Source: Palleronia rufa
Lineage (GTDB): Bacteria; Pseudomonadota; Alphaproteobacteria; Rhodobacterales; Rhodobacteraceae
Direction: 5' to 3'
DNA length: 64,000 bases
Assembly: GCF_000743715.1 (NCBI RefSeq)
Contig: NZ_JQEY01000007.1
Location: 1 to 64,000 of the forward strand
Both the position numbers and the translations under genes were made by a program. Each line of letters begins with the position of its first letter. Position 1 is the first letter of the stretch. The notes under the pieces are model-generated. The model searched no databases. It saw only the letters and a list, made by a program, of their open reading frames with translations, and had not been told where the DNA came from. Below, piece by piece: positions 29,635 through 31,500 of this stretch.

Positions 29635-31500
29635 ATGCACGCCTATCGCAGCCAGACCTGCGCCGCGCTCCGCAAGGGCGACGTGGGAGAGACCGTGCGC
29701 CTCTCGGGGTGGGTCCACCGGGTGCGCGACCATGGCGGCGTGCTCTTCATCGACCTTCGCGACCACTACGGGATCACCCAGGTGATCTGCGACCCGGATT
29801 CGCCGGCGTTTTCAGAGGCCGAGAAGGTCCGCTCGGAATGGTGCATCCGCGTGGACGGGACCGTGAAGGCGCGGGACGAGAGCCTGGTGAACCCCAGGCT
29901 GCCGACCGGCGAGATCGAGGTCTATTGCCGCGAGATCGAGGTGCTGGGCCGGGCCGCGGAACTGCCCCTGCCGGTCTTCGGTGAGCCCGACTACCCCGAG
30001 GAGACGCGCCTGCGCTACCGCTTCCTGGACCTGCGCCGCGAGAGTCTGCACGCCAACATGGTGCTGCGCTCGGACGTGGTGCGCGACCTGCGCGAACGGA
30101 TGTGGGATCAGGGGTTCAACGAATACCAGACGCCGATCCTGACCGCCTCTTCGCCCGAGGGCGCGCGCGACTTCCTGGTGCCCTCGCGGTTGCATCCGGG
30201 CAAGTTCTACGCGCTGCCCCAGGCGCCGCAGCAGTTCAAGCAGCTGATCATGGTGTCTGGCTTCGACAGGTATTTCCAGATCGCGCCCTGTTTCCGGGAT
30301 GAGGACCCCCGCGCCGACCGCTCGCCCACGGATTTCTACCAGCTCGACCTGGAGATGAGTTTCGTCGAGCAGGAGGACGTGTTCGCCACCATCGAGCCGG
30401 TGATGCGCGGCTGCTTCGAGCGGTTCGGCGGCGGCCGGAAGGTCGACCAGGTCTTTCCCCGGATCAGCTATGCCGAGGCGGCGCTGAAATACGGCACCGA
30501 CAAGCCCGACCTGCGCAACCCGATCGAGATGCAGGTGGTATCGAAGCATTTCGCGGGCAGCGGCTTTGCGATCTTCGCGAGCCTGCTGGAGAAGGACGGC
30601 ACGGAAATCCGGGCGATCCCCGCACCGGGCGGCGGGTCACGCAAGTTCTGCGACCGGATGAACAAGTTCGCCCAGGAGCAGGGGCTGCCGGGGATGGGCT
30701 ATATCTTCTGGCGGGAGGTCGAAGCAAATCAGGAAAATCGAGACAAGATCGTCGATCCGCGCTCGCGAGAAGCCGATAGCCGAGAGATCGACGAAATACT
30801 CGATCCGAGGGATCGGACCTGGATTGTCGGCGCCGGTCCTCTCGCCAAAAACATCGGCCCGAAGCGGACCGAGGAGATCCGCCGGCAGCTTGGCCTCGGG
30901 GTGGGCGACGCCGCGTTCTTCCTGGGCGGCAGGCCGTCCGAATTCGAGGTTGTCGCGGGTCGCGCGCGGACCGTGATCGGGGAGGAGCTGGGGCTGATCG
31001 ACAAGGACCGTTTCGCCTTCGCCTGGATCGTCGATTTCCCCATGTACGAGAAGGACGACGAGGGCCGCATCGACTTCAGCCACAATCCGTTCTCCATGCC
31101 GCAAGGCGGGATGGCGGCGCTGGAGGGCGATCCGCTGGGCGTGCTGGGCTATCAATACGACCTGTCCTGCAACGGGTACGAGCTGGTCTCGGGCGCGATC
31201 CGCAACCACCGGCCGGAGATCATGTTCAAGGCGTTCGAGATCGCCGGCTACCCGGAGGAAGAGGTCCGGTCCCGCTTCGGCGGCATGGTCAACGCGTTCC
31301 AGTACGGCGCCCCGCCGCACGGGGGCTGCGCGGCCGGCATCGACCGGATGGTGATGCTGCTGGCCGATGAGCAGAACATCCGCGAGGTCATCATGTTCCC
31401 GATGAACCAGCAGGCGCAGGATCTGATGATGAACGCGCCGTCGGAGCCGACGTCCGAGCAGCTCCGAGACCTTGGCCTGCGCGTCCTGCCGCGGGACTGA
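29635..31500 (+). CDS. aspS: Aspartyl-tRNA synthetase, with an extra in-frame segment
   Basis: 621 residues, against about 590 for the bacterial enzyme. Domains in order: OB-fold anticodon-binding domain ([21 protein letters not shown]), class II motif 2 ([24 protein letters not shown]), the bacterial insertion (GAD) domain, and motif 3 with [15 protein letters not shown]. The H(A/G)-region [19 protein letters not shown] is normal. Around residues 362-398 there is an extra, Asp/Glu/Arg-rich stretch not expected in the family, described separately. The frame is preserved, so the enzyme is presumably active. ATG 29635 follows AAAAGGGG by 7 bp. Confidence 0.96.
30718..30830 (+). repeat. Palindrome-rich in-frame insertion inside aspS
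   Basis: About 110 bp that interrupt the usual aspS sequence between FWRE and [11 protein letters not shown]. The segment is 54% GC by hand count over 30721-30828, visibly lower than its surroundings. It has nested palindromes: TCGTCGATC (30749-30757) with GATCGACGA (30786-30794), the self-complementary CTCGCGAG (30762-30769) between them, and CGATCC-GAG-GGATCG (30801-30815). It encodes a highly charged peptide ([12 protein letters not shown] ... [14 protein letters not shown]) in frame with no stop. Resembles in concept the Rickettsia palindromic elements found inside protein genes. Boundaries are approximate. Confidence 0.6.

What the first reader, a model, noticed from the sequence alone, without database searches (positions are those of the whole stretch)
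30718..30830. Palindromic, lower-GC element inserted in frame in aspS
Seen: about 110 bp between FWRE and [11 protein letters not shown], with nested palindromes (TCGTCGATC/GATCGACGA around CTCGCGAG, and CGATCC-GAG-GGATCG), 54% GC by hand count, coding a charged 37-residue stretch without a stop. Known: bacterial AspRS is about 590 residues; this one is 621. Known concept: Rickettsia palindromic elements enter genes in frame and are tolerated. Inference: a small mobile palindromic element, or a surface loop acquired by the insertion domain. It is a plausible undescribed selfish repeat in this lineage.
Basis: partly seen in the sequence, partly recalled or inferred. Interest (0 to 1): 0.75.

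Follow-up and report, generated by a model that had tools for sequence, protein, structure and literature searches.

The report
Swappable extra loop in aspartyl-tRNA synthetase
The extra stretch in this essential enzyme gene is not a palindromic mobile repeat: it sits at a spot where Rhodobacteraceae bacteria carry very different protein loops whose relationships do not follow those of the gene around them, a pattern that suggests the loops are exchanged between species.

Summary
The insert is real: this AspRS has 621 residues, and 12 of the 13 other genomes of its genus have a short loop there. Its palindromes are at chance level; it has no second DNA copy in its genome and no peptide relative in 393 sampled family genomes, so the "palindromic selfish element" reading fails. 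Comparison revealed something larger: this point of the GAD (insertion) domain is an insertion hot spot in Rhodobacteraceae. In a 235-sequence set enriched for long forms, 157 loops are short, 41 are of a related 35/36-residue kind, and 37 are long and very different; no other internal site has an insert of 8 or more residues. Long loops are scattered over the tree (34 changes for 37 tips), differ within genera, and their mutual similarity is uncorrelated with that of the flanks (Mantel r -0.01). All 37 have low GC3 (mean 0.49 versus 0.84), yet homologous pairs keep pN below pS, so they look translated and constrained. Best reading: a translated helical loop repeatedly replaced by recombination from a diverse pool. 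The selective cause is unknown, and the window's own loop has no detectable relative.

The parts
29635..31500 (+). aspS, aspartyl-tRNA synthetase, 621 aa
   Evidence: translation; Pfam tRNA-synt_2 (1.4e-109), OB-fold (1.2e-18), GAD (6.6e-4)
30577..30717 (+). first half of the GAD (insertion) domain, ending at ..GMGYIFWRE, the left border of the hot spot
   Evidence: PF02938 matches residues 315-361, profile positions 2-50 of 95 (20.3 bits, below the 23.4 cut-off)
30718..30828 (+). the insert: codons 362-398, 37 residues (net +31 against the 590-residue congener L010)
   Evidence: alignment; GC; no relative; helices 366-372 and 380-388 between strands 355-363 and 395-400
30829..30870 (+). right border, [14 protein letters not shown] (residues 399-412), in relatives mostly (EAA)[12 protein letters not shown]
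30749..30794 (.). inverted repeat TCGTCGATC/GATCGACGA (arms 30749-30757 and 30786-30794), not above chance
30742..30807 (+). weak internal direct repeat (30742-30759 and 30790-30807, 14 of 18 nt), peptide KIVDP/EILDP; possible internal duplication
   Evidence: 8 of 300 codon shuffles as good

Best explanation
The segment is an in-frame, translated peptide loop at the tip of a beta-hairpin in the GAD (insertion) domain of AspRS. In Rhodobacteraceae this position is an insertion hot spot where the short loop (about 9 residues, the usual state) is repeatedly replaced by longer helical loops of several families. Shown: near-constant borders, extreme patchiness, different loops within a genus, similar loops in distant genera, no correlation with the tree of the flanks, low GC3, pN below pS between homologous loops, and no other such internal site in the 235 proteins compared. 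Inferred: replacement is by homologous recombination between the conserved aspS flanks (allele exchange between species, from a lower-GC pool), not by a self-mobile element, and loops are kept or swapped because they change a surface contact of AspRS without touching catalysis. The window's own loop is one occupant of this site; it has no detectable relative and may be a newly made or degenerate one.
For: Same site: among 114 genes read, a set chosen to include long forms, loops of 7-12 residues in 61, 35/36 in 31 and 41 or more (up to 98) in 22. Patchiness: 55 S/A/H changes on a 235-sequence flank tree (100 label shuffles: 65-77) and 34 changes for 37 long tips; 32 and 23 after collapsing nodes under 0.95 support. 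Genera: g1 2 of 14 long with two different loops, g235 1 of 5, g24 1 of 4, g296 one long and one 35-residue loop with flanks 73-95% identical per 60 nt. Decoupling: Mantel r -0.012 for 37 long loops (553 of 999 permutations as high) against 0.40 (0 of 999) for the 35/36-residue class. GC3 0.485 versus 0.839, lower in 37 of 37, while GC1 and GC2 differ little. pS 0.69-0.88 against pN 0.25-0.48 in 9 long-loop pairs. Profile of 10 long loops: all 21 hits at E <= 8.5e-4 in 394 genomes lie in AspRS at this site, 9 of them rows of the profile itself. In 235 rows the rest of the protein shows inserts of 8 or more residues only at its ragged ends. Structure models put helices there.
Against: No recent transfer was caught: the compared homologous long loops are near or at saturation at synonymous sites, so exchange is inferred from patchiness and decoupling, not from identical tracts. 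pN is biased down because pairs were aligned as proteins; this matters most for the least similar pairs. Long loops diverge fast and many share only a C-terminal motif, which weakens any Mantel correlation. The flank tree is a single-gene tree with weak deep nodes. Low GC3 could reflect relaxed codon selection or selection for rare codons, not a foreign pool (the 35/36-residue class is also lower in 31 of 41, though slightly); no pool was found in plasmids, phages or viral contigs for the loops tried. The window's own loop shows no similarity to the others, so its membership rests on position and composition alone.
Confidence: 0.7

Rival explanations
1. Tolerated junk: the loop tip accepts almost any in-frame insertion; insertions arise by duplication or illegitimate joining, drift, and are deleted. 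No function and no exchange. (The 'no function' part is compatible with exchange, so this overlaps with the best explanation and the odds need not sum to 1.)
For: The site or its edge also bears unrelated inserts outside the family: a low-complexity repeat in L329, a glycine/aspartate-rich stretch in L367, and another insert in a viral-collection contig with a non-Rhodobacteraceae-like AspRS (L347). The own loop has a weak internal repeat and no relatives. Long loops sit at tips of the tree.
Against: Homologous loops recur in distant genera with pN below pS and a shared C-terminal motif; no other internal site in 235 proteins has an insert of 8 or more residues; the 35/36-residue kind is kept in 12 of 12 species of five genera (loops read).
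Confidence: 0.3
2. Ancestral domain: one long loop was present in the family ancestor, evolved very fast, and was lost many times.
For: Many long loops share the C-terminal motif I...xSGD...A.FL..A.FG..EAAG.
Against: Short loops are the rule across the class: 30 of 30 best-scoring class loci read have loops of 4-9 residues; of four more opened for odd spans or gaps, two have extra residues, neither resembling these loops. Losses would have to be very numerous; Mantel r is -0.01; low GC3 in 37 of 37 is not expected of an old resident.
Confidence: 0.12
3. Rickettsia-palindromic-element-like selfish DNA inserted in frame.
For: In-frame, lower GC, 9-nt inverted repeat.
Against: No second copy in the own genome; palindrome at chance in the own insert and at p <= 0.05 in 1 of 36 other long inserts; loop profile found at confident scores only in aspS.
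Confidence: 0.03

Closest known systems
GAD / insertion domain of bacterial-type AspRS (Pfam PF02938)
   Same: The insert lies inside it; this domain is described as helping to position tRNA in the active site (PMC4237437, passages seen).
   Different: No extra exchangeable loop in it is described in the passages seen; the bacterial AspRS chains listed from the PDB are 580-620 residues long, and the two alignments shown have no such insert.
Rickettsia palindromic elements
   Same: In-frame segment tolerated inside a protein gene (concept recalled; the PMC2635572 passages seen mention proteins with such elements).
   Different: Not palindromic beyond chance, not repeated in the genome, confined to one site of one gene.
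Conserved signature indels in housekeeping proteins
   Same: The 35/36-residue class resembles one: 12 of 12 species of five multi-species genera carry it, one subtype per genus. A 4-residue AspRS deletion in the region 343-391 is reported as such a signature in Xanthomonadales (PMC3568101, passages seen).
   Different: The long loops differ between species of a genus and do not follow the flank tree; the 35/36-residue class is itself scattered among short forms between genera.
Exchanged specificity regions with trans-species polymorphism (e.g. restriction specificity domains; recalled)
   Same: Hypervariable segment in constant borders, swapped between lineages.
   Different: Here in an essential cytosolic translation enzyme, with no known partner.

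Membership tests
Rickettsia palindromic element-like repeat | multiple dispersed copies in the genome | tested here: not met
   only the locus itself; next match 20 nt, E 0.058
Rickettsia palindromic element-like repeat | palindromic structure above chance | tested here: not met
   35 of 500 shuffles; z -1.66
Rickettsia palindromic element-like repeat | in-frame residence in a gene | tested here: met
   open frame through the insert
Rhodobacteraceae AspRS GAD-loop hot spot (defined here) | position between FWR and (EAA)GPLAKN | tested here: met
Rhodobacteraceae AspRS GAD-loop hot spot (defined here) | GC3 well below the rest of the gene | tested here: met
   0.59 in the loop, 0.89 in the gene; group test
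Rhodobacteraceae AspRS GAD-loop hot spot (defined here) | sequence similarity to another long loop | tested here: not met
   best E 0.84; no hit in own genome
Intein | splicing domain and nucleophilic junction residue | tested here: not met
   insert of 37 aa, no Pfam match for it, residue after it is G
Translational bypassing element | segment not translated | tested here: inconclusive
   homologous loops show pN below pS, which speaks for translation of those; the own loop has no relative to test

The most novel reading that the evidence does not exclude
The AspRS GAD loop is a recognition-variable cassette: an outside agent (phage protein, contact-dependent or secreted toxin, or mobile-element product) binds AspRS at this surface, and Rhodobacteraceae escape by swapping the loop from a shared pool, giving an essential housekeeping enzyme the population genetics of an immunity locus.
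Probability: 0.2. Interest if true: 0.85.

Novelty: new variant of a known kind. Interest (0 to 1): 0.6.

Why it matters
Aminoacyl-tRNA synthetases are often used as vertical markers (recalled). Here the flanks form a gene tree while one loop has a history of its own, with foreign-like codon use. No AsnRS was found in 295 family genomes (the same search rang in 11 of 14 control genomes), so AspRS very probably charges tRNA-Asn too and works with GatCAB (inference). If the loops are under diversifying selection, something targets or docks on this enzyme, and the loop collection is a ready-made set for finding it. If they are neutral, the site is a natural permissive insertion point.

Tried and rejected
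Palindromic selfish repeat: rejected. DNA-level target site: synonymous positions beside the junctions are not unusually conserved (mean percentile 0.61 over 36 columns), and no target-site duplication was seen by eye in the 15 pairs printed. Donor elsewhere: of the 30 loci kept from the profile search, eight are not in AspRS and score E 0.0013 or worse; in the class survey 5 of 289 genomes hit at E 0.002-0.005, and the two opened are GreA-like proteins by recognition from sequence, taken as chance. One long loop (L069) gave no match in plasmids or phages; two (L069, L101) gave none confirmed in viral contigs. AspRS in four viral-collection contigs is 58-65% identical to the query and not Rhodobacteraceae-like by sequence. 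Pfam, PHROGs and PADLOC gave nothing better than E 0.049 for the loops; eight queries each, one of the Pfam queries being the whole enzyme. AsnRS as a correlate of loop class: none found. Eight paper searches listed no description of this loop that I could see from titles and abstract starts; the library lacks most subscription papers.

Limits: the 235-sequence set is not a random sample: it includes the 41 one-piece long forms and profile hits. Left out of the tree: 17 repeats of genomes already in the set, two truncated (L205, L216), two more with short flanks (L119, L172), exact duplicate flanks of the same class, L218 (a long loop missed by my range of locus numbers), loci whose borders did not fit the pattern (mostly outgroup; also L329, L330, L332), and the loci. 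Classes in the tree were set by loop length. Correction made on checking: the second 'insert' is a C-terminal tail, so no internal one remains; one more non-family insert was found beside the site (L367).

Full report
Observation. The window encodes a 621-residue aspartyl-tRNA synthetase at 29635-31500 (+). The segment 30718-30828 is in frame, 54-55% GC against 69% for the window; only 0.5% of 113-nt stretches are as low. Congeners show it is extra: of the 13 other genomes of the genus, 12 have a 9-residue loop such as FWR-DGENGLEAA-GPLAKN and one has a different long loop. The palindromes exist, but equally long inverted repeats occur in 35 of 500 shuffles and 30 of 500 random stretches of the window, and the RNA fold is not notable. 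The segment has no second copy in the genome, and its peptide finds nothing better than E 0.035 in 393 other sampled genomes of the family. A palindromic mobile repeat is therefore rejected.

What the relatives show. The long congener (G007, L021) has a 63-residue loop at the same point. A survey of the family, nearly one genome per genus (295 searched, 287 with a match at the threshold), and reading of 114 genes gave loops of 7-12 residues in 61, 35/36 residues in 31, and 41 or more (up to 98) in 22; this set was chosen to include long forms. The family is Rhodobacteraceae: the Oceaniglobus ichthyenteri contig coincides in length and position with that of G195 in the same family. In the class survey 111 of 115 genomes had a match. 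I read the 30 best-scoring class loci: all 30 have loops of 4-9 residues. Four more opened for a gap or a long span gave two with extra residues at or beside the site (L329, about 30, low-complexity; L367, 13) and two without. The other class genomes were not read. The insert falls inside the GAD domain (Pfam match residues 315-361, profile 2-50 of 95, below the curated cut-off).

The long loops are not one frozen insertion. Ten of them align weakly except for a C-terminal motif. A profile of these ten, run on 394 family genomes, gave 21 hits at E 8.5e-4 or better, all in AspRS at this site; 9 of the 21 are rows of the profile itself. L218, at 0.0023, is a further AspRS loop; the eight other loci kept, from E 0.0013, are not in AspRS. 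So this module is confined to aspS as far as the search can see. The own loop does not match the profile.

History. I built a tree of 235 AspRS proteins with the loop removed: 157 short (S), 41 of 35/36 residues (A), 37 long (H, the window's included). It needs 55 changes of class; 100 label shuffles need 65-77. H against the rest needs 34 changes for 37 tips. Collapsing nodes under 0.95 support leaves 32 and 23. Genus labels do not depend on this tree: of 18 genera with two or more species, the four with a long loop are all mixed (g1 2 of 14 with two different loops, g235 1 of 5, g24 1 of 4, g296 one long and one A), nine are uniformly short (partly by match span), and five are uniformly A (12 of 12 species read: g294 4, g299 2, g56 2, g210 2, g249 2). 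Similarity among the 37 long loops is uncorrelated with distance of their flanks (Mantel r -0.012, 553 of 999 permutations as high), while the A class is correlated (r 0.40, 0 of 999). Loops of L021 (g1) and L069 (g235) are 65% identical, although the other sampled species of both genera lack them.

Composition and selection. GC3 of the long loops averages 0.485 against 0.839 in the rest of the same genes, lower in 37 of 37; GC1 and GC2 differ little. The A class is 0.686 against 0.740, lower in 31 of 41. Between homologous long loops pS is 0.69-0.88 and pN 0.25-0.48 in nine pairs, which points to conserved protein; the figure is biased towards low pN by protein alignment, and synonymous sites are near saturation, so none of these pairs is a recent transfer. 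Apart from this site, the 235 aligned proteins show inserts of 8 or more residues only at the ragged ends. Outside the family other sites do take inserts: 18 residues in L170 and 9 in L366.

Mechanism. Close pairs place the borders almost constantly between TTCTGGCGN and the codons for (EAA)GPLAKN, with no target-site duplication seen. Synonymous sites beside the borders are not specially conserved, so a DNA-recognising element is not indicated. Homologous recombination in the flanks is the simplest way to replace a loop; this step is inferred. AlphaFold2 models of moderate confidence (mean pLDDT 79.7 and 76.4) place the own insert as helices 366-372 and 380-388 between strands 355-363 and 395-400 (block pLDDT 60-83), and a long loop (L279) as a group of helices between strands 361-366 and 438-441 (block pLDDT 56-78). 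A paper passage describes the insertion domain as helping to position tRNA (PMC4237437). No AsnRS was found in 295 family genomes, so AspRS probably also serves tRNA-Asn with GatCAB; this is common to all loop classes and does not explain the variation.

Verdict. The finding as titled is not supported, but its place is a hot spot of loop replacement in an essential enzyme. For the window's own loop only position and composition tie it to the others; a weak internal repeat (8 of 300 codon shuffles as good) may mean it grew by local duplication. Whether the variation is adaptive is open: neutral tolerance remains a serious rival.

Noticed in passing
L329 (G364, another alphaproteobacterial family), aspS GAD loop: An insert of about 30 residues at the same AspRS point made of a low-complexity repeat (SGSGRDS units).
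   Followed up: partly
L367 (G423, another family), aspS GAD loop: Thirteen extra residues, glycine- and aspartate-rich, beside the same point.
   Followed up: no
L347, 2683-4563: AspRS in a viral-collection contig, unlike those of Rhodobacteraceae, carries another insert at the same GAD loop; it may be host DNA in the contig.
   Followed up: partly
L349, 97-2004; L170: Inserts at other points of AspRS: about 40 residues further on in the GAD region of L349, 18 residues after reference residue 271 in L170.
   Followed up: no
L122 (G071) in the flank tree: AspRS of a different genus nests inside the window's genus, which may be whole-gene transfer of aspS or a genus-boundary matter.
   Followed up: no
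the 35/36-residue loop class (41 sequences in the tree, e.g. L036-L049): A loop like EKTADAVAQELGISVKEAQAKLKSGEVEGGMEAA that resembles a small helix-turn-helix by eye; at least two subtypes (EKTADAVAQE and KQSADSIAQE).
   Followed up: partly
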